Positions 1-49,079 of a stretch of DNA of 64,000 nucleotides are shown here, in pieces. Positions within the stretch are counted from its first letter, which is position 1, and each line of letters begins with the position of its first letter. Position numbers and translations under genes: made by a program. The notes under the pieces are model-generated. The model did no database searches. It was not told the origin of the DNA and saw nothing but the letters and a program-made list of their open reading frames with translations. Source of the DNA: Sphingobium sp. KCTC 72723 (lineage in GTDB: Bacteria; Pseudomonadota; Alphaproteobacteria; Sphingomonadales; Sphingomonadaceae); the NCBI RefSeq assembly GCF_014280435.1, contig NZ_CP060388.1, positions 2,927,501 through 2,991,500 on the forward strand, read 5' to 3'.

Positions 1-2
1 TG

Positions 3-377
3 GACGAAGCGATCCGCTGGACCAGCCCGGTCAAGCATTTCATGCGCAATGCCACGGCCGACACGCAGGTGCGCGGCATGGACATTCGCGCGATGGAACG
101 GCTGATGATCTGTTATCCGTCGGGCAACCGCGACGAGGCGGTCTTTGCCGATGCCGACCGTTTCGACATCACCCGGTCGCCCAACCCACACATCGCCTTT
201 GGCTTTGGCCCGCATATGTGCCTGGGGCAACATCTGGCCAAGCTGGAGATGCGGATCCTGTTTGAGGAACTGCTGCCGCATCTCAAGTCGGTCGAGATGG
301 CGGGTGTTCCGCGCATGGTCGAAACCAATTTCGTGGGCGGTTACAAGGCACTGCCGATCCGCTTCACCAAAAACTGA
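3..377 (+). CDS. Cytochrome P450, C-terminal part (5' end outside window)
   Basis: Only the last 124 codons are present; the frame is open to the window edge. The first residues contain the K-helix ExxR (EAIR). The heme-binding loop FGFGPHMCLG follows, with the Cys that ligates the heme iron, and then the L-helix. These are hallmarks of a soluble bacterial class I P450 monooxygenase, which would need a ferredoxin and ferredoxin reductase; neither is visible here. A hairpin terminator directly follows, so the P450 is probably the last gene of its own transcript, although the aldehyde dehydrogenase behind it could belong to the same catabolic programme. Substrate cannot be judged from this fragment. 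Confidence 0.95.
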   Translation, partial: DEAIRWTSPVKHFMRNATADTQVRGMDIRAMERLMICYPSGNRDEAVFADADRFDITRSPNPHIAFGFGPHMCLGQHLAKLEMRILFEELLPHLKSVEMAGVPRMVETNFVGGYKALPIRFTKN

Positions 378-448: not shown

Positions 449-1957
449 ATGAACGCACCGACCACCATCGCCGCCGGACTGCATGGCGAAACGGGGCATG
501 AAGTTCGCCTGCCGCCGCAGAAGATGCTGATTGGCGGAGCGTGGGAGGATGCCGGGGACGGTCGCACCATCGCGGTGGAGGATCCCGCGACCGGACGGAT
601 ATTCGCCAGCGTTCCGGCGGGAACGGCCGCCGATGTCGATCGCGCCGTGACCAGCGCGCGCGCTGCCTTCGAATCTACGACATGGAGCCGGATGCGTCCG
701 CTCGATCGTGGCAGGATCATTGAGGCGATCGCGCGCAAGATCGAGGATAATGCCCAGGAACTGGCGCTGCTGGAAAGCTATGACAATGGCAAGGCGGTAC
801 ATCATGCCCTGGCCGTGGACGTGCCCGCCGCCGTCGACATTTTTCGCTACATGGCGGGCTGGGCGTCGAAAATCTATGGTCAGGTGAACCCCATTTCGGG
901 CGATGGCCGCCAATATCACAGCTATTCGGTGCGCGAACCGATCGGCGTGGTGGGACAGATCGTACCGTGGAACTATCCGCTGGCCATGGCCGCGTGGAAG
1001 ATTGCGTCGGCGCTGGCGGCGGGTTGCACCATTGTGTTGAAGCCGTCCGAAGTCACCCCGTTGACCGCGCTGCGCCTCGCTGAACTGGCGCTGGAGGCGG
1101 GGCTACCCGAAGGCGTGCTGAACATCGTCACCGGCTATGGTCATGAGGCGGGACAGGCGCTGGTCGAACATCCCGGCATCGACAAGATCGCCTTCACCGG
1201 GTCGACCCGCGTGGGCAAGCAGATCGTCCAGACCTGCGCGAAGGATCTCAAGCGGGTTACGCTCGAACTGGGCGGTAAGTCGCCCTCGCTGATCTTTGCC
1301 GACGCGGACCTCGACAAGGCGGCGATCGGCGCGGCGCTCGCCATCTTCTTCAACAGCGGGCAGGTCTGCCTTGCTGCCTCGCGACTCTATGTCGAACGGT
1401 CGGTGTTCGACAAGGTGGTCGATGGCGTGGCGCAGGTCGCAAAGACCTTCAAACTGGGCCATGGGCGTGATCCCGACACGATGCTGGGGCCGCTGGTGTC
1501 GAAGATGCAGCAGGGCCGGGTGCTGGACTATATCGAACAGGGCAAGGCAAGCGGCGCGGAACTGGTGACGGGCGGCGGCACGGGCGATCGGGACGGCTAT
1601 TTCGTCGAGCCGACCATCTTTGCCAATCCCGATGCAAATGCCAGCATCGTGCGGGAGGAGATTTTCGGCCCGGTGCTGGTCGCGACGCCGTTCGACGATG
1701 TGAATGATGTGGTCCGGCAAGCCAACGACACCCGCTATGGCCTCGCGGCGAATATCTGGACCCGCGACCTGTCGCGCGCGCATCTGACCGCACGCAAATT
1801 GCAGGCCGGAACGGTGTGGATCAATACTCACGGCATGAACGATCCCTCTGCACCCTTTGGCGGGGTCAAGGAATCGGGCTGGGGTCGCGAAGTCGGTGAA
1901 GAAGGCGTCCTGCATTACACGGAAACCAAGACGGTTACCGCGCTGCTGGAGGAGTGA
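449..1957 (+). CDS. NAD(P)-dependent aldehyde dehydrogenase
   Basis: A 502-aa member of the ALDH superfamily, normal in length. It shows the LELGGKSP motif with the general-base Glu (E273), the NSGQVCLAA motif with the catalytic Cys (C307), the 34-residue spacing usual between them, and the C-terminal EEIFGPVL motif. It oxidises an aldehyde to the carboxylic acid with NAD(P)+ in the cytoplasm. It is close in type to betaine-aldehyde or phenylacetaldehyde dehydrogenases, but the substrate cannot be fixed. The neighbouring P450 and downstream alcohol dehydrogenase make oxidation of an alcohol-derived aldehyde in one catabolic route plausible; that is inference. Confidence 0.95.
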   Translation: MNAPTTIAAGLHGETGHEVRLPPQKMLIGGAWEDAGDGRTIAVEDPATGRIFASVPAGTAADVDRAVTSARAAFESTTWSRMRPLDRGRIIEAIARKIEDNAQELALLESYDNGKAVHHALAVDVPAAVDIFRYMAGWASKIYGQVNPISGDGRQYHSYSVREPIGVVGQIVPWNYPLAMAAWKIASALAAGCTIVLKPSEVTPLTALRLAELALEAGLPEGVLNIVTGYGHEAGQALVEHPGIDKIAFTGSTRVGKQIVQTCAKDLKRVTLELGGKSPSLIFADADLDKAAIGAALAIFFNSGQVCLAASRLYVERSVFDKVVDGVAQVAKTFKLGHGRDPDTMLGPLVSKMQQGRVLDYIEQGKASGAELVTGGGTGDRDGYFVEPTIFANPDANASIVREEIFGPVLVATPFDDVNDVVRQANDTRYGLAANIWTRDLSRAHLTARKLQAGTVWINTHGMNDPSAPFGGVKESGWGREVGEEGVLHYTETKTVTALLEE

Positions 1958-4516: not shown

Positions 4517-5446
4517 ATGATGGAACTCACCACCGCCACCATGACCGCAAATTGCGAGCGCTATATTCCCAATCCGGCGATCCCGAAATGGAACCAGAGC
4601 TATTACTTCAATTTCTATGACCGCAAGGCAAAGTTAGGTGGGTTCATCCGTGTCGGCATCATGGAAAATCTGGGCGAAACCAATGGTTTTGCTATTTTCT
4701 TCAAGGATGGAAAGCCGCTATTCACGCGGGTGAATATGCAGTTGCCCTACACGTCCGACCGGCTCGACCCCGGCCTGGAGGTCGCAGGCGTGCGGATGGA
4801 GGCGACACAATCGCTCCAGACCTGCCGCATCCGTATCGACCTGGAAGATTTCGGCGCGGACCTGATATGGGATCTGCGCTTCCCGATGGGCGACAGCATC
4901 GTCCCCAGCACGGAAGGCGACGACGCTATCGCGCGCGAACTGGCCTATATCCATCTGGAAGGCACCTGCAATGTCACCGGCACGGTGCGTCTGCGCAGCG
5001 GGGAAGTCATCACGATCGACGATAGCGGTTTCCGCGACATAAGCTGCGGGCCGCGCAACTGGGCCGGGGTGCAGCATTACCGCCTTGCCTGGCCGATCTT
5101 CGACAATGGCATGGCCTGCGTCGCGGTCCATGCGATCACCGAACATGGACATAGCTATCAAAAAATCCTGCACGACGGAAAGCGCTGGCACAATATCGGC
5201 CGGGTCGAAGAGACGATCGAATTTGAAGACGACGATATGGGCTTTCGCCATGTCCATTGGAAGGTGTGGGATGAGGACAAAAAGCTGTGGGAATTTACCG
5301 GCACGCCGCTGTTTCGCTGGCAATTCCCGTTCGACACGTTCGTGATGGTCGAACAGATGATGGAATATCGGCTGGCCGACGGGACGATCGGCTATGGCAT
5401 GGGCGAGGGCGGGTTTCGCTTTCCCTGGGAAGGGAATGGCAACTGA
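4517..5446 (+). CDS. Cassette protein A: 309-aa protein of uncharacterised family (copy 1)
   Basis: A soluble protein with no signal peptide or membrane segment, rich in aromatic residues and predicted beta structure. It is paralogous to the 309-aa product at 7184-8113. The family's conserved segment RDHSWGPR (seen intact in copy 2) appears here as RDISCGPRNW near residue 175. The architecture recalls lipocalin-like CrtC/AttH-type proteins, and may correspond to the Pfam DUF7064/DUF7065 families (from memory, not checked). Function is unknown. Its stop overlaps the start of the phosphotransferase gene (ATGA), so the two are translationally coupled. ATG 4520 is an equally possible start behind GAGGTAAG. 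Confidence 0.85.
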   Translation: MMELTTATMTANCERYIPNPAIPKWNQSYYFNFYDRKAKLGGFIRVGIMENLGETNGFAIFFKDGKPLFTRVNMQLPYTSDRLDPGLEVAGVRMEATQSLQTCRIRIDLEDFGADLIWDLRFPMGDSIVPSTEGDDAIARELAYIHLEGTCNVTGTVRLRSGEVITIDDSGFRDISCGPRNWAGVQHYRLAWPIFDNGMACVAVHAITEHGHSYQKILHDGKRWHNIGRVEETIEFEDDDMGFRHVHWKVWDEDKKLWEFTGTPLFRWQFPFDTFVMVEQMMEYRLADGTIGYGMGEGGFRFPWEGNGN

Positions 5447-6627
5447 TGTCCGACACGCTTGACGCCCCGTCGATAGATAGCGTCGACATCTGGGACCGCG
5501 ATGACATGGAGCCGCGTATTCGGGACATTCTCGACCGGACCGTGCGCGACCGTATAAACGGTCCCTATGCGGCGAAAACCGAAGCGCAGGTCGTCGCGAT
5601 GCTGGAAAACTACTTCGCGGTCACTGAGGGGCTGGAGGATATCGCCATATCCGACGTTGCGCGCATGGCGGGCGGCGCGTCGAAGGAGCAGTTCGCGTTC
5701 ATCATACGGCACAGGGGCGATGCAACGGGCGAGAAGCTGGTGCTGCGGATGGACCCGCTGGAGGCGATCGCCCAGACCTGTCGCGGACGCGAGGCGCAGG
5801 TACATGTGGCGTTTGCCGACATATTGCCGGTAGCGTCGGTGCGCAGCGTCGATGCCAACGGCGATATACTCGGTCAGCCAGCGATCATTCTGGGTTTCGT
5901 CAACGGCGTGACCGAACCGACCCAGGGCACCGGACACGGCGTTTCGGGCATCGGCACGCGCTATGATGAATGGGCGGCGAAGTTGACGCCGCAATTTATC
6001 GACGCGCTGGCACAGGTCCACAGGTTCGATTGGCGCGCCGCCGATCTAGCCGATTTCGCGGCGCCTGAACCGGGCACGCGACAGGCGGCGATTTGGCAGG
6101 TGAACTGGTGGTCGCAGGTATGGTGGGACGGGGTGGTGCAGCCGGTCGCCATGGTCACCTATGCCGAACGCTGGCTGCGCGAAAATGCACCGATCTGCGA
6201 TCAGCCGGTAATGTGCCACAGCGACCTGCGGCTGGGCAATTTCATGTTCGAGGAGCCAAGCGGCAAATTTACCGCCGTGCTGGACTGGGAACTGGCGCAT
6301 ATCGGTGATTTTCACGAAGATATTGCCTGGGCCATCCAGCGCCTGTTTGGCACATGGACCGACGATGGCATTTTTCTGGTGTGCGGGCTGATCGCGCGGG
6401 ATGAATTTCTGCGTGCCTATGAAATCGCGTCGGGCAACCGGATCGACCCGGTCAAGCTGCGCTATTATGAAGTGCTGAACGCCTATAAATGCGCGGTGAT
6501 TGACTTGGGTCAAGCGATGCGGGCGGCCACCGAAAGCAATAATCACCAGGACATCATCCTGACATGGTTGGGTTCGGCAGGGGCCGTCTTCCTGGAACAA
6601 CTCGTCACGCTCATTCGGGAGGCCTGA
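5446..6627 (+). CDS. Cassette protein B: APH-family phosphotransferase (copy 1)
   Basis: A 393-aa kinase-fold protein of the aminoglycoside phosphotransferase/ACAD10-11 N-domain type. The catalytic loop is H258-S-D260-LRLGN265 and the metal-binding DxE is at D280-W-E282. The conserved C-terminal part (NAYKCAVIDLGQAMRA) is nearly identical to copy 2. Related enzymes phosphorylate hydroxyl groups of small molecules, for example LvaA on 4-hydroxyvaleryl-CoA and ACAD10/11 on 4-hydroxyacyl-CoA. Antibiotic resistance is unlikely given the context. The start is fixed by the ATGA overlap with gene A; an open frame upstream of it (from 5287) is only a shadow of gene A. Gene C follows after 3 nt. Confidence 0.9.
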   Translation: MSDTLDAPSIDSVDIWDRDDMEPRIRDILDRTVRDRINGPYAAKTEAQVVAMLENYFAVTEGLEDIAISDVARMAGGASKEQFAFIIRHRGDATGEKLVLRMDPLEAIAQTCRGREAQVHVAFADILPVASVRSVDANGDILGQPAIILGFVNGVTEPTQGTGHGVSGIGTRYDEWAAKLTPQFIDALAQVHRFDWRAADLADFAAPEPGTRQAAIWQVNWWSQVWWDGVVQPVAMVTYAERWLRENAPICDQPVMCHSDLRLGNFMFEEPSGKFTAVLDWELAHIGDFHEDIAWAIQRLFGTWTDDGIFLVCGLIARDEFLRAYEIASGNRIDPVKLRYYEVLNAYKCAVIDLGQAMRAATESNNHQDIILTWLGSAGAVFLEQLVTLIREA

Positions 6628-6630
6628 TCC

Positions 6631-7143
6631 ATGCTGCCCAATATCGACCTGCGTATTGCCAATATGATGAAGGCGCTGGAACAGGTGATCCTGCCCGCCT
6701 TGCCGCGCGAACAACGGCTGGCACGCGATCAGGCTATGCTGGTCGTCGGCCAGTTGCACATGATGAGCCAGCAATGGAAATCGGCGTTGCGTTACGAAGC
6801 GCTGTCGCTGGACGAACTGATCGCGCTGGCCCGCGCATTGGCCAGCGATGCGCCCGCGTCGATCGGCGCACCGCTGGAAACCGCGCTGGCCGTGGCGCAG
6901 GCGTGTGACCGCACCAGCATCGCTGCGCTCGAGCAGGCCAGCGTCGCCTTGGGCCATGCCGTGGATGCGGTCATATTGGGTGGGACGGAGCATCTGCCCC
7001 TTTCACCCGCCGCGACCGACGCGGTGCTGGATTATGCGTTGCGTCACGCCCGGCGCGAACGGACCTGGTTCAAGGCGAACCAGATGGACCCCGACCAGGG
7101 CGACCTGCCCGACATAGAGGCGATGCTGACCACTGCCCACTGA
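6631..7143 (+). CDS. Cassette protein C: 170-aa alpha-helical protein, unknown function (copy 1)
   Basis: I do not recognise a family. The protein is Leu/Ala-rich and probably all helical, without signal peptide or membrane segment. It begins MLPNIDLRIANMMKALEQVI and closely matches the start of the 168-aa product at 9304-9810. A good ribosome site (CGGGAGG at 6616-6622) precedes ATG 6631, three bases after the kinase stop. Always following the phosphotransferase in both copies, it may be a partner or regulator of that enzyme, or a second domain that is separately encoded. That role is inference. Confidence 0.8.
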   Translation: MLPNIDLRIANMMKALEQVILPALPREQRLARDQAMLVVGQLHMMSQQWKSALRYEALSLDELIALARALASDAPASIGAPLETALAVAQACDRTSIAALEQASVALGHAVDAVILGGTEHLPLSPAATDAVLDYALRHARRERTWFKANQMDPDQGDLPDIEAMLTTAH

Positions 7144-7183
7144 CGATAGCGATAATGACAGGCCATGGAGGGAGTTGCTTGCG

Positions 7184-8113
7184 ATGCCAGATATAACCCA
7201 GGGTTTTACGGACTTCCCCGTCAAGAATGCCTATCGGCACAAGCTGGCCGAAGACGGCCGGGAATCGGCCACGCACCAGTTTGTGCTGCCCCAATATGGC
7301 ATCGCCGGTTTCTATTATCCCACGGTGCGCGCCAACGGCCATGCCAAGGGGCGGCTGCACCTTTTCGGACCCGGCCTGCCCGCGCCGATTGAGGAGGAAG
7401 TCGAGCAGATGGTGTCCGACGACATGGATTTCGACGACTGGCGTTTTGGCCCGTTGCTGATGGCCGTGCGCGAACCGTTCAAGACGATCGACCTGGGCTG
7501 GGTCAGCGACCGCATCCAGTTCGAAGGGCAGTGGACCGCGATGCACCCGCCCTATGCCTTCAGTTCCCATCCCAAAGGCAATCCGCCTTATTATGGCGAT
7601 GATCGCACAGAGCAGCATGGCATCATCAGGGGCAATCTGCGCGTCGATGGGCGTGACTATCCGCTCAAGGATTTCATGATCCGCGACCATAGCTGGGGAC
7701 CGCGCGTATGGGGTTTGAACCAGCATTATAAATGGTTCCACGCAACCACGGCGACCGTGTCGGTGCATTTTTTCGAAATGATGTCGTTCGGCAAGGTCGA
7801 AACGCGCGGATATCTTTTCAAGGACGGTGTCATGCGGCACGTCGAGGGCATCGACTATGCAATCGATTATGATGATGACATGATGCACGATCGTTTTCGG
7901 GTGACCGTGACCGACACCGACGGACGTTCGGTATTTGTCGATTGCCAGTCATTCGCCAAATATCAGCTGGACCTCGACCCGGTGGTGCTGCTGAACGAAT
8001 CCGTGGTGACCGCGACGATCGATGGCGAAAAAGGCACCGGCTGGTGCGAATTCTGCTGGAACCGCGACTATCTGAAATTCGCCAAACCCTATGTCGAGCG
8101 TTTCGCCTGGTGA
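7184..8113 (+). CDS. Cassette protein A': 309-aa RDHSWGPR-type protein (copy 2)
   Basis: Same length as copy 1 and the same place in its cassette. It carries the full family motif RDHSWGPRVWG at about residues 166-176, followed by QHYKWFH; the clustered His, Asp, Arg and Trp suggest a ligand or metal site. No export signal. The start at ATG 7184 is chosen because GGAGGGA (7167-7173) sits about 10 nt upstream; TTG 7175 would leave almost no spacing. Its stop overlaps the first possible kinase start (ATGA at 8113). Function is unknown; a binding protein or isomerase-like role on the hydrophobic substrate is possible. Confidence 0.85.
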   Translation: MPDITQGFTDFPVKNAYRHKLAEDGRESATHQFVLPQYGIAGFYYPTVRANGHAKGRLHLFGPGLPAPIEEEVEQMVSDDMDFDDWRFGPLLMAVREPFKTIDLGWVSDRIQFEGQWTAMHPPYAFSSHPKGNPPYYGDDRTEQHGIIRGNLRVDGRDYPLKDFMIRDHSWGPRVWGLNQHYKWFHATTATVSVHFFEMMSFGKVETRGYLFKDGVMRHVEGIDYAIDYDDDMMHDRFRVTVTDTDGRSVFVDCQSFAKYQLDLDPVVLLNESVVTATIDGEKGTGWCEFCWNRDYLKFAKPYVERFAW

Positions 8114-8127
8114 TGGAGGAGGCCGCC

Positions 8128-9300
8128 ATGGAAACCCGGCGCGTTCGCGACAGCGACGTGGACATATGGGATCGCTCCGAAATGGAGTCGCGCATCCGGC
8201 ACATATTGGAACGCACCGTCCGCTTGCGCTCTACCGGTCCCTATCGCCCCAAGTCCGATGCGCAGGTCACCGCGATGCTCACCGGCTTCTTTGCGGCCAA
8301 GGGGTTGGAGGAGATCGCGATCAGCGATGTCGAACGCATGTCGGGCGGCGCGTCCAAGGAACAGTTCGCCTTCACCCTGCACCACAGGGCCAGCGTGCAT
8401 CCTGAACGGCTGGTGCTGCGCATGGACCCGCTGGAGGCGATCGCCCAGACCTGCCGGGGGCGGGAGGGTGAGATCCAGCGGATCATGGGCCATCATATGC
8501 CGGTTGCGCTGGTGCGCTGGTTCGACGCCGATGGCGATTTGCTGGGGCAGCCCGCCGTCATTCTGGAATTTGTGCGCGGCGTGACTCAGCCCAGCGAAGG
8601 CGGCGCGGCGGGCGTGTCGGGTATGGGCGGGCGTCTGGGCAGTTTGATCGACCGGCTGGCACCGCAATATATCGACGCGCTGGCAAAGACGCATCGGTTC
8701 GACTGGTCGCGCGCGCATCTGCGCTATTTCGATGCACCCCGCGCCAACAGTAACCAGGCGGCGATCTGGCAGGTCAACTGGTGGTCGCAGGTCTGGTGGG
8801 ACTGCTTGGTCGAGCCGGTGCCGGTGGTGACGCTGGCCGAACGCTGGCTGCGCGAACATGCGCCGGTGTGCGACGCGGCGATGCTGGTCCATGGCGATTT
8901 GCGCATGGGCAATTTCATGTTCGAGGAACACAGTGGCCAGTTCACCGCCGTGCTGGACTGGGAACTGGCCCATATCGGCGATTTCCACGAAGACATTGCC
9001 TGGACCATGCAGAAACTATTTGGCGCGTGGGGCGACGATGGTCGTTTTCTGGTCAGCGGCCTGCTGACCCGCGAAGATTTCATCAGCCGCTATCAAACGG
9101 CGTCGGGCAACCGGATCGATCCGGCCCGGCTCCATTATTATGAGGTGCTCAACGCCTATAAATGCGCGGTCATGGACCTGGGGCAGGCGATGCGCGCATC
9201 GGTCGCCAGCAATAATCATCAGGAGGTGGTGCTGACCTGGCTGGGATCTGCCGGGGCTGTATTCCTGAACGACATCATACAGTTGATACGGAGGACTTGA
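8128..9300 (+). CDS. Cassette protein B': APH-family phosphotransferase (copy 2)
   Basis: A paralogue of the kinase at 5446-6627 (390 aa from this start). It retains the Brenner motif HGDLRMGN and the DxE in VLDWELAHIGD, so it should be active. HGD here replaces HSD in copy 1. The start is ATG 8128 because GGAGGAGG (8115-8122) lies 5 nt upstream; ATG 8113, which overlaps the stop of gene A', is the alternative and would add five residues. Divergence is greatest at the N-terminus and in the substrate-side middle region, which suggests the two kinases act on different substrates or steps rather than being redundant. Confidence 0.9.
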   Translation: METRRVRDSDVDIWDRSEMESRIRHILERTVRLRSTGPYRPKSDAQVTAMLTGFFAAKGLEEIAISDVERMSGGASKEQFAFTLHHRASVHPERLVLRMDPLEAIAQTCRGREGEIQRIMGHHMPVALVRWFDADGDLLGQPAVILEFVRGVTQPSEGGAAGVSGMGGRLGSLIDRLAPQYIDALAKTHRFDWSRAHLRYFDAPRANSNQAAIWQVNWWSQVWWDCLVEPVPVVTLAERWLREHAPVCDAAMLVHGDLRMGNFMFEEHSGQFTAVLDWELAHIGDFHEDIAWTMQKLFGAWGDDGRFLVSGLLTREDFISRYQTASGNRIDPARLHYYEVLNAYKCAVMDLGQAMRASVASNNHQEVVLTWLGSAGAVFLNDIIQLIRRT

Positions 9301-9303
9301 GCG

Positions 9304-9810
9304 ATGTTACCCAGTATCGATCTGCGCATCGCCAATGTTATAAAGGCGCTGGAGCAGGTCATCCTGCCCGCGCTCATGCCGCGCGAACGGCTCGCCAGGG
9401 ACCAGATCAACCTGTGTATCGGCCATCTGCGGATGATCGGCGAACAATGGCGCTGGGCCGCCGCGTTCGAGAACGGGTCGTTTCACGCGATGATCGCGCT
9501 GGCCAAGGCTATGCAGGCGTCGGTCGACCCGTTCTACGCCGATGAACTGGCGGCGGCGATCATGTCGGCCGACGCGATAGAGGGGGGTGATCTGGCCACC
9601 GTGGAACATGGCATCGTTGCGCTGGGCGGTTTAATCGACCGCATCATCCTGGGCGAGGATGGGCAGTTTCCGCTGGCCCCCGAACTCTGGGACGCGGTGC
9701 TGACCTATGGCGAGAGGCAGGCGACGCGCGAGCGGACATGGTTTGCGGCGACCGGGCTTGACCCTGACCGGCATGAATTGCCCGGCATTGCGGAGATGAT
9801 GACCCGATGA
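9304..9810 (+). CDS. Cassette protein C': 168-aa alpha-helical protein, unknown function (copy 2)
   Basis: A paralogue of the product at 6631-7143, starting MLPSIDLRIANVIKALEQVI and sharing the LARDQ and late RERTWF-x-A motifs. GGAGG (9290-9294) lies 9 nt upstream of ATG 9304, and the start follows the kinase stop by 3 nt, the same spacing as in copy 1. The preserved order and spacing show that the whole A-B-C block was duplicated as a unit. Its stop overlaps the start of the PrpD-family gene (ATGA), so translation continues into the next enzyme. Confidence 0.8.
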   Translation: MLPSIDLRIANVIKALEQVILPALMPRERLARDQINLCIGHLRMIGEQWRWAAAFENGSFHAMIALAKAMQASVDPFYADELAAAIMSADAIEGGDLATVEHGIVALGGLIDRIILGEDGQFPLAPELWDAVLTYGERQATRERTWFAATGLDPDRHELPGIAEMMTR

Positions 9811-11234
9811 AGCATGAAAGCCCGGTCCTGCCACAGGATGATCCCGCAGGATTGTTGGCGCAGATGGTGGCGCATACCCGTTATGAGGATATTCCCGCCG
9901 ACGTTATCGACCTGGCCAAGCGCGCGATTCTGGATACGCTGGCCGTCACTATCGCAGGATCCGGCTGGGAAGTTGCGCCCGCCATCGCCGATCAGGTAGC
10001 GGAATGGGGCGGGACGCCGCAGGCGCGGGTGCTGGTGCATGGCCATGCGGTTCCTGCGCCCATCGCCGCGTTTGCCAATGGGGTAATGGCCCGCGCCATC
10101 GATATGGGTGATGTCCATGAAACCGGCGGCCATGTCACCGAATGGAATGTCCCGGCGATGCTGTCCGTCCTGGGCATCGCGCCGGGGCCGGTCAGCGGGC
10201 GCGATTTCCTGACCGCTTATGTGACCGGCGCGGAAGTGGGCGTGCGTGCGAGCGCTGCGCTGAACCTTGTCCGTTATCACACTAATTGGGGGATGCCGGG
10301 CGAATGGAACGGCCCGCTCTGCGCCGCCGCGTCGGTCGCGCGCATCCTGGGCATGGATGCGGACGAGACATGGAACGCGATGGGCATGGCCTATACTGTC
10401 CATGGCATGTCGGAATATAATAAATATTCCGAAGGCACGCAGATGGCGCGGGTCCAGCATAGTTTTGCGGGCGATACGGCGGTCAAGGCCGCGTTGCTGA
10501 CGCGGCGCGGAGTGACGGCCCCGCGCGGTATCTTTCAGGGCGTACCAAGCGGCATATTGCGCCATATCGCGTGGGACGATGTGCGGCCCGAATTGCTGAC
10601 CGACGGGCTGGGCACGCGCTGGCAACTGGCAGAGGGGCGTTCGATGAAGCCCTATTCGGCGTGCAAGTTCACGCATAGTTTCATCGCCAGCACTGCCACG
10701 ATCATGCAGGGCGAAGGGCTGGACTGGCGCGATATCGACCGGATCGATTGTATTGGCAGCACTAGTCCGCGCATGACGTTCGAACCTGCCGCCGCAAAAT
10801 GGAACCCGGGCACCGTTGCGCAAGCCATGTTCAGCGCGCCCTATACAATTGCGACGGCGGCGATGACGGGCGGCTTTTTCCTTCAGGATTTGCACGCCGA
10901 CCTGATGATGGATGATGACCGCCGCGCGCTGATGCAGCGGGTGCATATCCTGTGCGATCCCGATCATGTCGATCAGTTTGAAGGGTTCAGCGTCGCGATC
11001 ACCATGCAGGACGGTCGCCGCTTCGCCCATGTCACGCCCTATGTGAAGGGGCATAGCCGCAATCCGATGACGTGGGATGATCTGGCCGACAAGCTGGCCC
11101 GTTGCGCGCCCTTTGCAGCGATAGCCTTGCCACAGGTCAAGCTCGACCGGCTCGTCGCGCTGTGCCGCGATATGGAGCAGGTCGATGACATGACCGCGCT
11201 GATCGATTGCCTGACCCCCTCTCACCCCGCTTGA
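9807..11234 (+). CDS. MmgE/PrpD-family protein
   Basis: A 475-aa member of the MmgE/PrpD family (2-methylcitrate dehydratase, cis-aconitate decarboxylase IRG1, iminodisuccinate epimerase). The N-terminal all-helical domain includes the ALDTLAVTIAG-type segment near residues 35-45 and GDVHETGGHVTEWN near residue 95; the lid domain includes KPYSACKFTHSFI near residue 280. Length is normal. Family members act by dehydration, epimerisation or decarboxylation of carboxylic acids. Coupling to the duplicated cassette by an ATGA overlap implies that it works on a product of that pathway rather than in propionate metabolism, because no prpB or prpC lies nearby. The reaction is not determinable. Confidence 0.9.
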   Translation: MKHESPVLPQDDPAGLLAQMVAHTRYEDIPADVIDLAKRAILDTLAVTIAGSGWEVAPAIADQVAEWGGTPQARVLVHGHAVPAPIAAFANGVMARAIDMGDVHETGGHVTEWNVPAMLSVLGIAPGPVSGRDFLTAYVTGAEVGVRASAALNLVRYHTNWGMPGEWNGPLCAAASVARILGMDADETWNAMGMAYTVHGMSEYNKYSEGTQMARVQHSFAGDTAVKAALLTRRGVTAPRGIFQGVPSGILRHIAWDDVRPELLTDGLGTRWQLAEGRSMKPYSACKFTHSFIASTATIMQGEGLDWRDIDRIDCIGSTSPRMTFEPAAAKWNPGTVAQAMFSAPYTIATAAMTGGFFLQDLHADLMMDDDRRALMQRVHILCDPDHVDQFEGFSVAITMQDGRRFAHVTPYVKGHSRNPMTWDDLADKLARCAPFAAIALPQVKLDRLVALCRDMEQVDDMTALIDCLTPSHPA

Positions 11235-11252: not shown

Positions 11253-12350
11253 ATGATGAAGGCCGCCATACTCAACGCGCTCGATGGCACGTTCCAGATC
11301 GAGAATATCGACATCGACACGCCGCGCGGGCGCGAGGTTCTGGTCGAGGTCAAGGCGTCGGGCCTGTGCCATTCCGACCTGCATTTTGCCGAGCAGGATT
11401 TCGGCGTGCCGTTGCCCGCCGTGCTGGGGCATGAACTGGCCGGTGTCGTCCTGGCGATTGGCCCGGAAGTGCGCGAATTTGCCGTGGGCGATCATGTGGT
11501 GGGGTCGCTGATCCAGTTTTGTGGCCATTGCCGCGCTTGCATCGGCGGCAAGACCTATCAATGCACCCATCCGGAAGAAACGCTGCGCGACGATCCCGCA
11601 CACGCCCACCGCCTGACCCGTAATGGCGAGGGCGTGGCCCAGGTGTTCGGCACCGGCGCCTTTGCCGAACGTGCGCTGGTGCATGAAAATCAGCTGGCCA
11701 TCGTGCCCAAGGAACTGCCCTTCGCTCAAGCGTCCCTGCTGGGTTGTGGCACGATCACCGGCGCTGGCGCGGCGATCAACACGGCGTCGGTCCGGCCGGG
11801 CGATACGGTTGCGGTCATTGGCATCGGCGGCGTTGGGCTGAACGTGATTTCGGGCGCGCAACTGGCCGGGGCCGCGCGGATCGTGGCGATCGACAGGCAG
11901 CCCAAGAAGGAGGAACTGGCGCGCCGGTTCGGGGCCACTGATTTCATCGATGCGTCGGCGGGCGACAGCGTTGCCGCGCTCCAAGCGCTGATCCCCGGCG
12001 GCGTGGACCATGCGTTCGAAGTGGTCGGCATCAAGGCGACGTCTGAACAGGCAATCAAGATGGTTCGCAAGGGTGGCGGCGCCTATCTGATCGGGGTCCA
12101 TGCGCCGACCAGCACGATCGACGTCAATGTGACGGTCGACTTGCTGACCAATCAGGTCGATCTGCGCGGCGTTTATATGGGGTCATCCAATATCAAGCAT
12201 GACATACCGATGTATGCCCGGCTCTATCTGGAAGGAAAACTCAACCTGGACGATCTGATTTCGCGCGAGATCAACTTGGCCGACATCAATGAGGCCTATG
12301 AGGAACTCAAAGGAGGATCCATCGCCCGCAGCGTCATCACATCTTTCTAG
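11253..12350 (+). CDS. Zinc-dependent alcohol dehydrogenase (MDR superfamily)
   Basis: A 365-aa medium-chain dehydrogenase. The catalytic zinc is held by Cys in GLCHSDLHF and by the LGHELAG motif. Structural-zinc cysteines are visible around CGHCRACIGGKTYQC, and the NAD-binding GIGGVGLN motif lies near residue 190. It belongs to the class III/aryl-alcohol type that oxidises primary alcohols to aldehydes. AAGGAG at 11244-11249 fits ATG 11253 or ATG 11256. As the last gene of the run it could supply aldehyde to the dehydrogenase at 449-1957, though that is only inferred from proximity. A large hairpin follows the stop. Confidence 0.93.
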   Translation: MMKAAILNALDGTFQIENIDIDTPRGREVLVEVKASGLCHSDLHFAEQDFGVPLPAVLGHELAGVVLAIGPEVREFAVGDHVVGSLIQFCGHCRACIGGKTYQCTHPEETLRDDPAHAHRLTRNGEGVAQVFGTGAFAERALVHENQLAIVPKELPFAQASLLGCGTITGAGAAINTASVRPGDTVAVIGIGGVGLNVISGAQLAGAARIVAIDRQPKKEELARRFGATDFIDASAGDSVAALQALIPGGVDHAFEVVGIKATSEQAIKMVRKGGGAYLIGVHAPTSTIDVNVTVDLLTNQVDLRGVYMGSSNIKHDIPMYARLYLEGKLNLDDLISREINLADINEAYEELKGGSIARSVITSF

Positions 12351-12508: not shown

Positions 12509-13300
12509 ATGAGCCGCATGTCACAGAACAAGCATATTTTGCCGACAAAGCGCATTCATAATTTCCGAGATTATGGCGGCTATACGGTTCGAGGCGGTGG
12601 CCGTTTAAGACCTGCCATGCTCTTTCGTTCGGGTGAACATTCCAAAGCCACCACATCTGACCTGGCACTCGTTGACGACTTGGCTCTCAAGGCTATGATC
12701 GATTTGCGCAGTCTGGATGAGCGCGTTGCAAAGCCCAATCGCTACAGCGTCTCCAGTCGGGCAAAAATTCTATTTTCTGATAGCTATATTCATGCCCGTC
12801 CACCCCATGAGGCAATTATGGACGTTGCCGCTACACCGCAAATGGTCCGTGCGCGCCTCTTGGAATATTATAGAATCAGTCCTTTCAAACCAGAGCAAAT
12901 TAATTGCCTTCGTCTCTATTTTTCAGCGTTGATCGAAACTGATGGGGCGACATTGGTGCATTGTGCCGCCGGAAAGGACAGGACGGGTATAGCCGTTGCG
13001 CTGTTCCACAAAATCATTGGGGTGGAGATCGGCGATATATTCGCCGACTATCTTCTAACTAATGAGGCAGGGGATTTGAACGACCGCATCGCTTCATTTG
13101 GCTATAGCGTGCGCGCGCATCTAGGGGATGATCTGAGCGAAGAAACCCTGAGAATAAGTTTGTCGGTAGAAGAGCAATATCTCAATGAAATGTTCAAATC
13201 TATATATATTCAGCATGAATCAATCGAAGAATATTTTCGCAAAATATTAAAATTTGATAATTGCCAAATAGATTATCTTATGAATAAATTTGTTGTTTAG
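12509..13300 (+). CDS. Tyrosine-protein phosphatase, PtpB/Y_phosphatase3 type, cytoplasmic
   Basis: A 263-aa protein with the N-terminal RNFRDYGGY-like motif (HNFRDYGGYTV), the LIDLRS-type strand (MIDLRSLDE) and the P-loop HCAAGKDRTG, with nucleophile Cys at about 152 and Arg at about 158. These mark the Cx5R phosphatase family, which also includes lipid and inositol phosphatases. No signal peptide. ATG 12518 is an alternative start; neither has a clear ribosome site. The gene is notably AT-rich, especially its last 100 codons, compared with the very GC-rich neighbours, which suggests acquisition by transfer. It is flanked by AT-rich non-coding DNA and a broken esterase. Confidence 0.85.
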   Translation: MSRMSQNKHILPTKRIHNFRDYGGYTVRGGGRLRPAMLFRSGEHSKATTSDLALVDDLALKAMIDLRSLDERVAKPNRYSVSSRAKILFSDSYIHARPPHEAIMDVAATPQMVRARLLEYYRISPFKPEQINCLRLYFSALIETDGATLVHCAAGKDRTGIAVALFHKIIGVEIGDIFADYLLTNEAGDLNDRIASFGYSVRAHLGDDLSEETLRISLSVEEQYLNEMFKSIYIQHESIEEYFRKILKFDNCQIDYLMNKFVV

Positions 13301-15320: not shown

Positions 15321-18005
15321 ATGAAATATGGCGTGCAACTGTCCATCTCGCTGTTCGCGTTGGCGGCGGCGCAAGCGGCGGCGGCCCAGACCGGCGCTGG
15401 TCAGGCGGCCGGGAGTGCGAGCGATGGCGACATCATCGTCACCGGGATGCGCGCCAGCCTGTCGTCGGCCCAGAACATCAAGCGCAACGCGCAGCAACTG
15501 GTCGATTCCGTCGTGGCCGAGGATATCGGCAAGCTGCCCGACAATAATGTGGTGGAGGCGCTCCAGCGCGTGCCCGGCATCCAGGTGTCGCCCCGCGCCC
15601 GCGGCGAATCCGCCACCGTGTTGATCCGTGGCCTTCCCGACGTTGTGACGCTGGTCAACGGCCGCAACATCTTCAGCACCACCGGTCGCTCGCTTTCGCT
15701 GGCGGACGTTCCGGCGGATCTGGTCGCGGGCGTTGACGTCTACAAATCGCGCTCGGCCGAACAGCTGGAAGGCGGCATTGCCGGCCTCATCAATGTCCGC
15801 ACGCGACGGCCCTTCGACTTCAAGGGATTTGAATTCGCGTTGGCAGGTCGCGAAGTCTATAGTGAGCAGCCCGACAGGATCGATCCTTATGCCAGCGCGC
15901 TCATCAGCAACCGCTGGTCGACTGGCATCGGCGAGATTGGCGCACTCGTGAGTGTCTCCTACCACAAGACCCGCTATCGCGACCAAACCATCTATAGCGG
16001 CGGCTATTTCGGCTATAATCTCGATAACAGCCGCGCGCCCTACACGCCCGGCGTTCCGCTCGACCCGCGTGGCACCAGTGCGGCTGATCCGAAAGTATTC
16101 CGCACCGACGTCATCGGTGCCTTCGACCGGATCGGCACCCGAACTCGCCCGGCGGTCAACGCGACGCTGCAATGGGCGCCCGACGATCGGCTGACTATCC
16201 ATGCCGACGGCTTGTTTTACGGCTATCGCGAACGCGGCAACAGCAACCAGAATTTCACGTCGGTGAACGGCGCTTTGCTCGCACCGCTGGTATTCGTCGA
16301 CGACACCAAGCTGGTCCAGTCGCTCAGCATCGCCAATGGCCGTGTCGCCAATTTCGGCGGAGCCTATCAGAATAAGGCGGACCGTTGGCAGGGGGCGCTA
16401 GGTGCCGACTGGACCAGCGGCGACTGGGAAGCATCGACCGAATTTTCCTATACCCGGTCCAAGGCCACCGACATCGGCAATAATCTGGATATCGACTTCA
16501 TCGCCTCGCGCACCGACGCGGTATTCAACGATGGTTCGGGCGCACCCCGTTTCACCCTGCCTAATGACGACATCGCCGATCCGTCGCGCTATTATCTCTC
16601 GCGTCTGTCCACCACCCGCACGGTCGGCGACGGCAGGGAATTGGCCTGGCGTGGCGACCTGTCCTACCGGACGCCTTTCCTCATCTTCTCCGGCCTCGAC
16701 GCGGGCATCCGTCTCAGCAAGCGCGACGCCAAATCGGACAGCTTCACCCAGACCATCAACTGCTCCGCAACTGGCGCGGTCCGGTGCAACAGCATCAAGG
16801 CGGCGAGCCTGCCCGGCCTGATAACGGTAACGCCAGGCGACTTTTATACCGGCACCCGCCAATTCGTGCGTCAATGGGCGACCCCGACCACCGATTATCT
16901 GCTGAACAATATAGGATCTCTGCGCCAGTTGTTCGGCCTCGCTCTAGGCGACCCGGCCTTCCAGGATACCCAGCATTTCGACATCGAGGAAAAAAACTAT
17001 GCCGGCTATGGCCAGGCCAATGTAGATGTCGGCCGACTGGACGGCCAGATCGGCGTCCGTGTCATCCGCACCGACATCACGTCCAACGCCTTCCTGGTCC
17101 TGCGCGGCGCAACGTCGCCGGTCACCATCCGCAACAAGAGCACCGATATCCTCCCCAGCCTGGCGCTGCGCTATAAGCTCAAGGACAATCTCTTCCTGCG
17201 CTTTGCCGCCAGCAAGACGATCACCCGCCCCAGCTTCGCCCAGCTCAATCCCGCGCTGACCCTGACCCCGCCAGTGCCGGGGCAACAGCCATTCGGTCGC
17301 GGCTCCAGCGGCAATGCGGACCTGAGGCCGGTCCGGTCGGACAATTACGACCTGTCGCTCGAATGGTATATTGATCGTTCCAGCTCGATCACCGCGACGA
17401 TCTTCCGCCGCGACGTCACCGGCTTCATTCAGTCGGTGACCAGCAATTTCGACATCGACTATCTGGGCGTGGACAATGGCGTCTATCAGATTACCCGGCC
17501 GGAAAATTCGGGGTCGGGCAAGCTGGAGGGCATTGAGGGCGGTTTCACGGTCTTCCCCAAAGGACTGCCGACCTGGCTCGACGGAATCGGCGTCAGCGCC
17601 AACGGCACCTATATCAAGGGTAAGAACAAGGCGCTGTCGCCGCTGCCAGGCGTTATCGGCTTTCTGGACATCCCGTTCCAGAATGTGTCGAAATATTCCG
17701 CGACAGGCACTTTGATATACGAAACGGGCGGCTTTTCGGCCCGCGCCTCCTATGTCTGGCGCGACAAATATAATGCGGGCCTGCATTTCACCGGGGTCAA
17801 TCCCAACTTCATCACCAACGGCCAGATCAGCAATCTCGACCTGTCCATCTCCTATGAACTCAATCCCAACTTCACGATCGTCGCCGATGCGACCAATATA
17901 CTCAAAAATCTCTACCAGACCTCGTTCAACGACCCCGGCCTCTACCCGCGCGACACCGTTCTTTACACGCGCACCTTCGCCGTCGGGTTCCGGGCGAAAA
18001 TCTGA
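15321..18005 (+). CDS. TonB-dependent receptor, carbohydrate-utilisation type (TBDR 2)
   Basis: 894 aa from ATG 15321, which has AAAGGGGA about 7 nt upstream and opens directly into a signal peptide ending AAAAQ; the in-frame ATG 15285 would bury that peptide. The plug carries DIIVTGMRASL, EDIGKLPDNNVVEALQRVPG and VYKSRSAEQLEGGIAG, the Caulobacter/Xanthomonas subtype that serves plant glycans and oligosaccharides. It starts the operon GH39, MFS, acid-sugar dehydratase, reductase, so it probably imports the oligosaccharide. The overlap of its stop with ATG 18005 (TGATG) shows tight packing with the glycosidase gene. The FadR-type regulator is transcribed divergently. Confidence 0.93.
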   Translation: MKYGVQLSISLFALAAAQAAAAQTGAGQAAGSASDGDIIVTGMRASLSSAQNIKRNAQQLVDSVVAEDIGKLPDNNVVEALQRVPGIQVSPRARGESATVLIRGLPDVVTLVNGRNIFSTTGRSLSLADVPADLVAGVDVYKSRSAEQLEGGIAGLINVRTRRPFDFKGFEFALAGREVYSEQPDRIDPYASALISNRWSTGIGEIGALVSVSYHKTRYRDQTIYSGGYFGYNLDNSRAPYTPGVPLDPRGTSAADPKVFRTDVIGAFDRIGTRTRPAVNATLQWAPDDRLTIHADGLFYGYRERGNSNQNFTSVNGALLAPLVFVDDTKLVQSLSIANGRVANFGGAYQNKADRWQGALGADWTSGDWEASTEFSYTRSKATDIGNNLDIDFIASRTDAVFNDGSGAPRFTLPNDDIADPSRYYLSRLSTTRTVGDGRELAWRGDLSYRTPFLIFSGLDAGIRLSKRDAKSDSFTQTINCSATGAVRCNSIKAASLPGLITVTPGDFYTGTRQFVRQWATPTTDYLLNNIGSLRQLFGLALGDPAFQDTQHFDIEEKNYAGYGQANVDVGRLDGQIGVRVIRTDITSNAFLVLRGATSPVTIRNKSTDILPSLALRYKLKDNLFLRFAASKTITRPSFAQLNPALTLTPPVPGQQPFGRGSSGNADLRPVRSDNYDLSLEWYIDRSSSITATIFRRDVTGFIQSVTSNFDIDYLGVDNGVYQITRPENSGSGKLEGIEGGFTVFPKGLPTWLDGIGVSANGTYIKGKNKALSPLPGVIGFLDIPFQNVSKYSATGTLIYETGGFSARASYVWRDKYNAGLHFTGVNPNFITNGQISNLDLSISYELNPNFTIVADATNILKNLYQTSFNDPGLYPRDTVLYTRTFAVGFRAKI

Positions 18006-48017: not shown

Positions 48018-49079
48018 TCAGTCCAGCATCGTTGCCCGCAATGTGACGATGTCTGCGTCCGTCAATCCCAGCGCTTTCTTCATAAAGCCTTCAGATCCGC
48101 CATATTGCGCATCAACATAGGTGAAGAATTGCGCCAGATGCGACGCGCCGCTCGGCGTGTAGAGCGGTTCGGCCACCGTGCGTTTCTTCTCATCCGCCGC
48201 ATAATAATATTTCAGGATCGGGTTGTTGGGATAGTCGGCGGGATTGACCTTGGGCATTTCCCATTGCGGGCGGCGCAGGGCGGTGGACATGTGATAGTCC
48301 TTCAGGATCGTGTCGCGATCCACGCCCAGCATGTCGTAAAGCAGCGCCGTCGCCATGCCCGTGCGATCTTGCCCCGCCGAACAATGGTAGATTACTGCCC
48401 CTTCATTCGCCTCGATCCGGCGATAGAGCGCGCGCAATTGCGGGACGAGCATCTTTTCCATGCCCTGATAGACATTTTCGCCATTGCCCTTGCCGAAATT
48501 CGCCATCAGGGGCTTGAGCGAATAATCATTGGCAATGAATAGCGCGCCGGTGCGATCGTCGACCAGATCCGGGGCGACTTCGCGCTCTTCGATCGAGCGG
48601 AAGTCGACGACCGATCCAATGCCAAGCTGGTCGATCAGGCTGTAGTCCGCCTCGCTCAGCAATGGCATCGCACCGGACCGATATGCCTTACCCCAGCGTA
48701 TGGTGCGGCCATCCTTGGTCACATAGCCGCCTATGTCGCGGAAATTGCTGCCCTGTTCCAGCGGCAGAACCCGTTCGCCGACGACGTTGACATGGCCCTT
48801 ACGGTCCTTGAGCAGGACATAGCGGCGGCTGTTGGCCGGGATGGCCAGCGTCAGCTTGCCGTCCTTGCCCGCTGCCTTGATCAGGCCCGGCTCGACCTGC
48901 TGGTCGGCCTTGTCGATCATGCCATCCTGGCTGATCCAGATCGCGACCGGCACCGTTTCGCCCCGGTCTAGGGTGACGTTGGCCGCGTCGATCCGGGTCA
49001 GGGTTGCAGCCTCCCGCGCGTTCGCCGGGGTGGCGATCGACGCGGCAAGGGCCAGCGAGGTGATTAGCGTGATGCGCAT
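48018..49079 (-). CDS. Secreted tyrosine-protein-phosphatase-like enzyme (Y_phosphatase3 type)
   Basis: 353 aa from ATG 49079, with GGAG 8 nt upstream and a signal peptide (LITSLALAASIATPANA). An N-terminal beta domain of about 110 residues precedes the phosphatase domain, which shows GSNFRDIGGYVT, SVVDFRSIEERE and the P-loop HCSAGQDRTG with nucleophile Cys and Arg. It is exported, so protein phosphotyrosine is an unlikely target; family relatives act on phosphoinositides and other phosphoesters. It directly follows TBDR 4 in one operon. A TTG at 49097 overlaps the receptor stop but is a weaker start. Confidence 0.85.
   Translation of the reverse strand: MRITLITSLALAASIATPANAREAATLTRIDAANVTLDRGETVPVAIWISQDGMIDKADQQVEPGLIKAAGKDGKLTLAIPANSRRYVLLKDRKGHVNVVGERVLPLEQGSNFRDIGGYVTKDGRTIRWGKAYRSGAMPLLSEADYSLIDQLGIGSVVDFRSIEEREVAPDLVDDRTGALFIANDYSLKPLMANFGKGNGENVYQGMEKMLVPQLRALYRRIEANEGAVIYHCSAGQDRTGMATALLYDMLGVDRDTILKDYHMSTALRRPQWEMPKVNPADYPNNPILKYYYAADEKKRTVAEPLYTPSGASHLAQFFTYVDAQYGGSEGFMKKALGLTDADIVTLRATMLD

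What the first reader, a model, noticed from the sequence alone, without database searches (positions are those of the whole stretch)
4517..9810. Tandem duplication of an uncharacterised three-gene cassette (A-B-C, A'-B'-C')
Seen: a 309-aa RDHSWGPR-type protein, an APH-fold phosphotransferase and a helical protein of about 170 aa occur twice in identical order, with the same tight overlaps (ATGA at A/B, 3 nt at B/C). B and B' both keep HxD and DxE residues, so both should be active. Inference: a kinase-driven catabolic module whose two copies work on successive or alternative hydroxylated intermediates, comparable in logic to LvaA or ACAD10/11 phosphorylation of hydroxyacyl-CoA. A and C have no function I can name.
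Basis: partly seen in the sequence, partly recalled or inferred. Interest (0 to 1): 0.82.

Follow-up and report, generated by a model that had tools for sequence, protein, structure and literature searches.

The report
ATP-driven alcohol dehydration operon, duplicated
A soil bacterium carries two side-by-side sets of genes that most likely strip a hard-to-remove alcohol group from plant-oil-like (terpene) molecules by first phosphorylating it and then expelling the phosphate, a trick described for cholesterol breakdown in an anaerobic bacterium.

The parts
1..377 (+). 3' end of the P450 gene that opens the operon; whole gene G000:C1:2926522-2927877 (L092:16522-17877)
   Evidence: Pfam p450; closest solved relative P450terp 8euh/1cpt, E 1e-166, 249 of 424 aligned residues identical = 58.7%
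449..1957 (+). aldehyde dehydrogenase
   Evidence: Pfam Aldedh E 9e-181; 86-96% identical in L007, L008, L009, L012, L014, L018
2021..4456 (+). TonB-dependent receptor, probable importer
   Evidence: Pfam plug and barrel
4517..5446 (+). A1: DUF7065-DUF7064 protein, second lyase type (RDISCGPR; H at A2 position 141, C at 171)
   Evidence: Pfam; related to the A2 family by profile (E 6e-11 with the A1 row left out); motif columns
5446..6627 (+). B1: APH-fold kinase, 25-HSK/Rv3168-like
   Evidence: Pfam APH E 5.5e-22; PDB sequence hits 9o56, 3ats, 3dxp, ACAD11, 9fsg
6631..7143 (+). C1: predicted helical partner of unknown family, in frame 3 nt after B1
   Evidence: no Pfam or NCBIfam hit; 48% identical to C2
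7184..8113 (+). A2: DUF7065-DUF7064 protein, predicted phospho-alcohol lyase (RDHSWGPR; D168 predicted catalytic)
8113..9300 (+). B2: APH-fold kinase, 25-HSK/Rv3168-like
9304..9810 (+). C2: predicted helical partner of unknown family
   Evidence: 42 relatives in the protein search; weak hhalign link to DUF6285 (weaker still)
9807..11234 (+). MmgE/PrpD family enzyme, overlapping C2 by ATGA
   Evidence: Pfam; nearest solved: IDS-epimerase and cis-aconitate decarboxylase, best E 7e-19
11253..12350 (+). zinc alcohol dehydrogenase (nearest model NDMA-dependent ADH, below cut-off)
   Evidence: present together with MmgE/PrpD in 9 of the 16 loci
12509..13300 (+). PF13350 phosphatase, possibly part of the set (uncertain)
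   Evidence: Pfam E 5.8e-50; a PF13350-like gene is also near A/B/C genes in L050, L051, L052, L055, L066, but this genome has 3

Best explanation
Each A-B(-C) set is an ATP-dependent alcohol dehydratase. B, an APH-fold kinase, puts a phosphate on an alcohol that cannot be oxidised directly, most likely a tertiary gem-dimethyl carbinol. A, a CrtC/AttH-fold lyase, then removes a neighbouring proton with its conserved aspartate (D168) and expels phosphate, leaving an alkene. C binds B and supports it, as LvaB does LvaA. The operon is a degradation pathway for a p-menthane terpenoid such as alpha-terpineol: TonB uptake, P450terp-like hydroxylation of the ring methyl, ADH and ALDH oxidation to an acid (oleuropeic-type), then ATP-dependent removal of the 8-hydroxyl (to a perillic-type acid), with MmgE/PrpD downstream. 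The two sets, with similar kinases but two lyase types, act on two hydroxyls, two enantiomers or two regiochemistries. Shown by computation: gene order, families, A2 and B2 folds, conserved residues, conservation of the operon. Inferred: the reactions, the substrate, the role of C and the reason for two sets.
Against: No activity data. 17-22% identity allows other substrates or reactions; AttH and pericyclases of the same fold score within 3 Z units of 25-PSL. A profile of 10 A1-type proteins finds no PDB sequence at E 5, and A1 was not modelled. Twelve of 57 A genes have no B-like gene within 1.5 kb on the same strand, and of 18 distant A loci in other Pseudomonadota genomes only 3 show one in the short flank. 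CYP108 relatives also take other substrates: a PAH-hydroxylating CYP108 is known (PMC7037279, abstract start in the listing), and p450tol scores 501 bits here. No CoA ligase or ring-cleavage gene was seen among the neighbours scanned. One hydroxyl of terpineol does not explain two sets. C's link to DUF6285 is weak (hhalign probability 26%; 2% with the narrower C alignment).
Confidence: 0.74

Rival explanations
1. Same kinase-plus-lyase dehydratase, but for another substrate: a steroid side chain, sesqui- or diterpenoid, or branched alkanol; the P450 resemblance reflects the CYP108 family only.
For: 25-HSK and 25-PSL act on sterols; relatives of A-B sit beside varied sets: alkane monooxygenase, P450 and rubredoxin in Sphingopyxis macrogoltabida, HMG-CoA lyase and enoyl-CoA hydratases in M. 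paragordonae.
Against: P450 58.7% identical to P450terp; no steroid-ring gene recognised among the 21 neighbours scanned.
Confidence: 0.35
2. LvaAB/ACAD10-11-like: B and C phosphorylate a 4-hydroxyacyl-CoA, and A is a hydratase, isomerase or binding protein.
For: B matches ACAD11 by sequence; C shows a weak link to DUF6285, a family found as the C-terminal part of an APH kinase beside an acyl-CoA dehydrogenase in three sphingomonad genomes (L096-L098).
Against: No acyl-CoA dehydrogenase or CoA ligase among the neighbours scanned; A resembles a phosphate lyase, which would supply the elimination step.
Confidence: 0.12
3. A is a CrtC/AttH-type hydratase or cyclase that adds water to, or rearranges, a terpene double bond, and B works separately, for example in detoxification or signalling.
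Against: 25-PSL is the first match in both structure and sequence; A lies within 300 nt of B in 37 of 57 cases.
Confidence: 0.12

Closest known systems
[quoted passage not shown]
   Different: Only 17-22% identity; here the two genes are joined, doubled, paired with C and placed behind a P450, whereas the 2021 paper found one kinase gene and no lyase candidate near it (PMC8449060 passages)
P450terp (CYP108A1) terpineol pathway
   Same: P450 58.7% identical; ADH and ALDH nearby
   Different: The passages seen do not say how the tertiary hydroxyl is removed and name no kinase or lyase; the original operon paper was not read
LvaA/LvaB of levulinate degradation; ACAD10/ACAD11 (papers on the latter seen as listing only)
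   Same: APH-fold kinase followed by phosphate elimination; small partner next to the kinase (LvaB, 12 kDa, interacts with LvaA in a pulldown: PMC6692424 passage)
   Different: No acyl-CoA dehydrogenase here; the proposed lyase is of another fold; C is longer (168-170 aa) and not a DUF6285 hit
Rv3168-Rv3169 operon of Mycobacterium tuberculosis
   Different: No C-like gene named in the passages; A scores 45-49 bits against a cut-off of 150

Membership tests
25-phosphosteroid lyase (for A) | Same fold over most of the chain | tested here: met
25-phosphosteroid lyase (for A) | Aspartate of the RDxSWG motif (N in the product complex 9g4c) | tested here: met
   54 of 54 rows (51 distinct), A1 and A2 included; that this residue is catalytic is inferred from the two PDB sequences
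25-phosphosteroid lyase (for A) | Eliminates phosphate from a tertiary phosphoester | not testable with these tools
   needs an assay
25-hydroxy-steroid kinase (for B) | APH fold, HxD and DxE catalytic residues | tested here: met
25-hydroxy-steroid kinase (for B) | Nearest among APH-fold enzymes to 25-HSK | tested here: inconclusive
   First by VIA (28.2), but Rv3168 (27.3) is within 1; by sequence 9o56, 3ats and 3dxp rank above 9fsg
25-hydroxy-steroid kinase (for B) | Phosphorylates tertiary alcohols | not testable with these tools
   needs an assay
LvaABC / ACAD10-11 | Acyl-CoA dehydrogenase partner in the operon | tested here: not met
   none among the six neighbours from the P450 to the PF13350 phosphatase, nor among 15 further proteins scanned
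DUF6285 / LvaB (for C) | Match to PF19802 | tested here: not met
   0 of 20 C proteins match at E 10; profile-profile score 28.8 against a maximum of 18.15 in 100 column shuffles, but probability only 26%, and 2% with the narrower C alignment
P450terp (CYP108A) | At least 55% identity (subfamily rule, recalled) | tested here: met
   58.7% over 424 residues
DUF7064/DUF7065 (for A) | Above Pfam gathering score | tested here: met
   A1 45.5/44.5 bits, A2 84.4 bits for DUF7064 (cut-offs 24.7/27); A2 26.8 for DUF7065, just under 27

The most novel reading that the evidence does not exclude
Bacteria hold a widespread, unrecognised class of ATP-dependent alcohol dehydratases (kinase B, CrtC-fold phospho-lyase A = DUF7064/7065, often a new kinase partner C) that removes tertiary hydroxyls from terpenoids and other isoprenoids under oxic conditions. 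Terpene degraders run two in series with different lyase regiochemistry, and Rv3168-Rv3169 of mycobacteria belongs to the same class.
Probability: 0.45. Interest if true: 0.85.

Novelty: new variant of a known kind. Interest (0 to 1): 0.72.

Why it matters
Tertiary alcohols cannot be oxidised directly, and the passages seen here do not say which genes let aerobic bacteria get past the one in terpineol. If right, two Pfam domains of unknown function gain a reaction, kinases filed as 'aminoglycoside phosphotransferase' gain a catabolic role, and an enzyme pair for making alkenes from tertiary alcohols becomes available in many sequence variants. No held paper contains DUF7064, DUF7065 or DUF6285; two held papers name the lyase, as unknown or putative.

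Tried and rejected
Simple tandem duplication of A-B-C: rejected for A (21-23% identity, trees). Antibiotic resistance by B: rejected, as the aminoglycoside and macrolide models score 16-39 bits against cut-offs of 205 and more. C as a plain DUF6285 member: no hit; kept as a distant link after shuffles, a reversed control (score 16.0) and B-segment controls (10.9-13.4), although the narrow C alignment gave probability 2%. Natural B-C fusion: none among the 120 listed of 1138 B relatives (lengths 341-437), but APH-DUF6285 fusions exist. The B2-C2 read-through model has pLDDT 80.8 and pTM 0.83, with parts of C's start under 50; no PAE or coordinates were seen, so the interface is untested, and its fold search mainly covered the kinase part. 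PF13350 phosphatase as a fixed part: not settled, as it is in 12 of 12 genomes searched, often away from the A genes. The profile comparison of A1 and A2 types first included an A1 row; repeated without it. Sterolibacterium's own loci were not looked at, and no search with 25-HSK or 25-PSL as query was run.

Not a census: the loci were found through A or C, so adjacency counts are biased towards sets. One search left out L069 and L073 as repeats of L018 and L007, but kept L051 and L055/L056, which hold near-identical sets. One search used A open frames with E under 1e-8 and over 230 aa; weaker or shorter ones were left out, and 54 rows are 51 distinct. One search used 26 of 29 A-B-C sets (exact repeats dropped); L006 set 1 was not among the 29 because its B is in two pieces.
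Full report
WHAT IS THERE. The window is contig position 2927501-2991500 of a 4.43-Mb genome. Its genus is probably Sphingobium: G224, listed as same genus, has the set on a contig of 108596 bases, the length of the Sphingobium sp. C100 contig of L007. It holds A1-B1-C1-A2-B2-C2 at 4517-9810. A = DUF7065+DUF7064, B = APH kinase, C = no Pfam or NCBIfam family. The set lies in a longer run: P450 (starting just before the window, L092:16522-17877), aldehyde dehydrogenase, TonB receptor, the six genes, MmgE/PrpD, zinc ADH, then a PF13350 phosphatase. DUF7064 (E 0.001) and C are found in this genome only here, twice each.

DUPLICATION. B1/B2 are 66%, C1/C2 48% and A1/A2 about 22% identical. In trees of 26 A-B-C sets, first- and second-position B's form sister clades, with the single-set B's of L018 and L050 on the second side; C gives a similar but less supported picture. 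The A tree sets the A1 type apart by a branch of 3.2, and the A1 type also occurs in Pseudomonas borbori (L016) and G345 (L067) with more distant B's (long-branch warnings apply). So B-C was copied and combined with two old kinds of A, or A was swapped. A1-type proteins (15 of 54 rows) carry H at position 141 and C, A, V or Y at 171, where A2 carries R and W. The second set of L014 is a remnant (coverage 0.42 and 0.55).

CONSERVATION. Of 16 loci that encode a C relative in one genome per species, 7 hold the double set (L006-L012; B1 of L006 in two pieces), L014 one and a remnant, 3 a single A-B-C (L013, with a 0.5-kb gap, L016, L018), 4 B-C without A (L015, L017, L019, L020), and L021 C with B on the other strand. 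MmgE/PrpD and ADH are present in 9 of 16; a P450 at 80-97% identity in 7 of 16, after the set in L011 and L018. Sphingomonas sp. MM-1 plasmid pISP1 has phosphatase-A-B-C-MmgE/PrpD-ADH near lin genes. In Sphingomonadales, DUF7064 is over cut-off in 17 of 396 genomes and C is in 10 of 396, both in 5. In 42 loci (window included; chosen through A or C), C lies within 300 nt of B in 43 of 44; A does in 37 of 57, 8 more lie within 1.5 kb and 12 do not. Actinobacterial plasmids carry A-B pairs, and A-B-C in Rhodococcus aetherivorans. Against: A is found in 18 of 398 Pseudomonadota genomes, and of the 18 loci outside this genome only 3 show a B-like gene in a flank of about 1.5 kb.

WHAT A IS. An AlphaFold2 model of A2 from 69 sequences has pLDDT 94.6. 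Foldseek's first five matches are 25-phosphosteroid lyase chains (E 1e-14 to 1.5e-13), then kievitone hydratase, AttH and the CghA/Fsa2/Phm7 pericyclases; VIA gives 25-PSL 25.4, AttH 24.2, pericyclases 22.6. A profile of A finds 25-PSL by sequence as well (E 2.2e-6), over the RDxSWG stretch; there 9fzn has D and the product complex 9g4c has N, which I read as an inactivating change made to trap the complex (inference). That D is present in 54 of 54 aligned A rows. For A1 the lyase assignment rests on homology to A2 (E 6e-11 with the A1 row left out) and on the same D; its own profile finds nothing in the PDB.

WHAT C IS. Helical in the joint model, with parts at low confidence; close behind B, with TGA-NNN-ATG in frame in 20 of 25 B-C junctions examined, both window sets included. 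It has no consistent Pfam match in 20 members and no PDB sequence below E 0.6. Its N-terminal 66-81 columns align in register with DUF6285 (hhalign score 28-29, E 7e-4, probability 26%; 100 column shuffles reach at most 18.6); with the narrower C alignment the score is 19.7 and the probability 2%. DUF6285 occurs fused behind an APH kinase, beside an acyl-CoA dehydrogenase, in three sphingomonad genomes. That LvaB is a DUF6285 protein is recalled, not tested; that it interacts with LvaA is from PMC6692424 (passage). So: a kinase partner, probability about 0.7.

SUBSTRATE. The P450 is 58.7% identical to P450terp, which makes 7-hydroxyterpineol (PMC7794910 passage); terpineol is degraded via oleuropeic acid (PMC4109377 passage). 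Removal of the 8-hydroxyl would give perillic acid, which Castellaniella activates and cleaves (same paper). Terpineol's (CH3)2C(OH)- group is the same as that of 25-hydroxysteroids (established chemistry). I put 0.5 on a p-menthane alcohol or acid and 0.8 on the reaction type.

NOVELTY. The reaction pair is known; the operon-borne, doubled, three-protein, terpene-linked form is a new variant in what I could find. Searches behind that: DUF6285/DUF7064/DUF7065, 0 papers; lyase and kinase names, 5 papers of which 2 are on this enzyme pair; four of five linking terms since 2022, 0 papers. The library lacks most subscription journals, and a paper for the 2026 structures may exist outside it.

Noticed in passing
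L050 (Sphingomonas sp. MM-1 plasmid pISP1, 5337-34260): The single A-B-C-MmgE/PrpD-ADH set lies just past an IS6100 copy beyond which are linA and linX, with a second A gene on the other strand; the module travels on a pollutant-degradation plasmid.
   Followed up: partly
L054-L058 (G383:C8) and L051 (Novosphingobium resinovorum pSA1): One contig carries eight of this genome's nine DUF7064 genes and several B-C pairs with TonB receptors, an ALDH and a PF13350 phosphatase; it looks like a large unexplored catabolic island.
   Followed up: partly
L059-L065 (G393): Ten DUF7064 genes spread over four contigs with weak B-like kinases and TonB receptors but no C.
   Followed up: no
window 12509-13300 and 48024-48767 (-): Two of this genome's three PF13350 phosphatases lie in the window; whether the first removes phosphate from pathway intermediates is open.
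   Followed up: partly
L096-L098: APH kinase fused to DUF6285 beside an acyl-CoA dehydrogenase: an LvaA-LvaB-like fusion in sphingomonads.
   Followed up: partly
L093 (Mycobacterium paragordonae plasmid): A-B pair inside a cluster with HMG-CoA lyase, CoA-transferase and enoyl-CoA hydratases, suggesting a branched-acid substrate.
   Followed up: no
L092:14705-15430 and 15528-16277: Integrase-core gene and a MerR-type regulator directly upstream of the P450; the regulator may control the operon.
   Followed up: no
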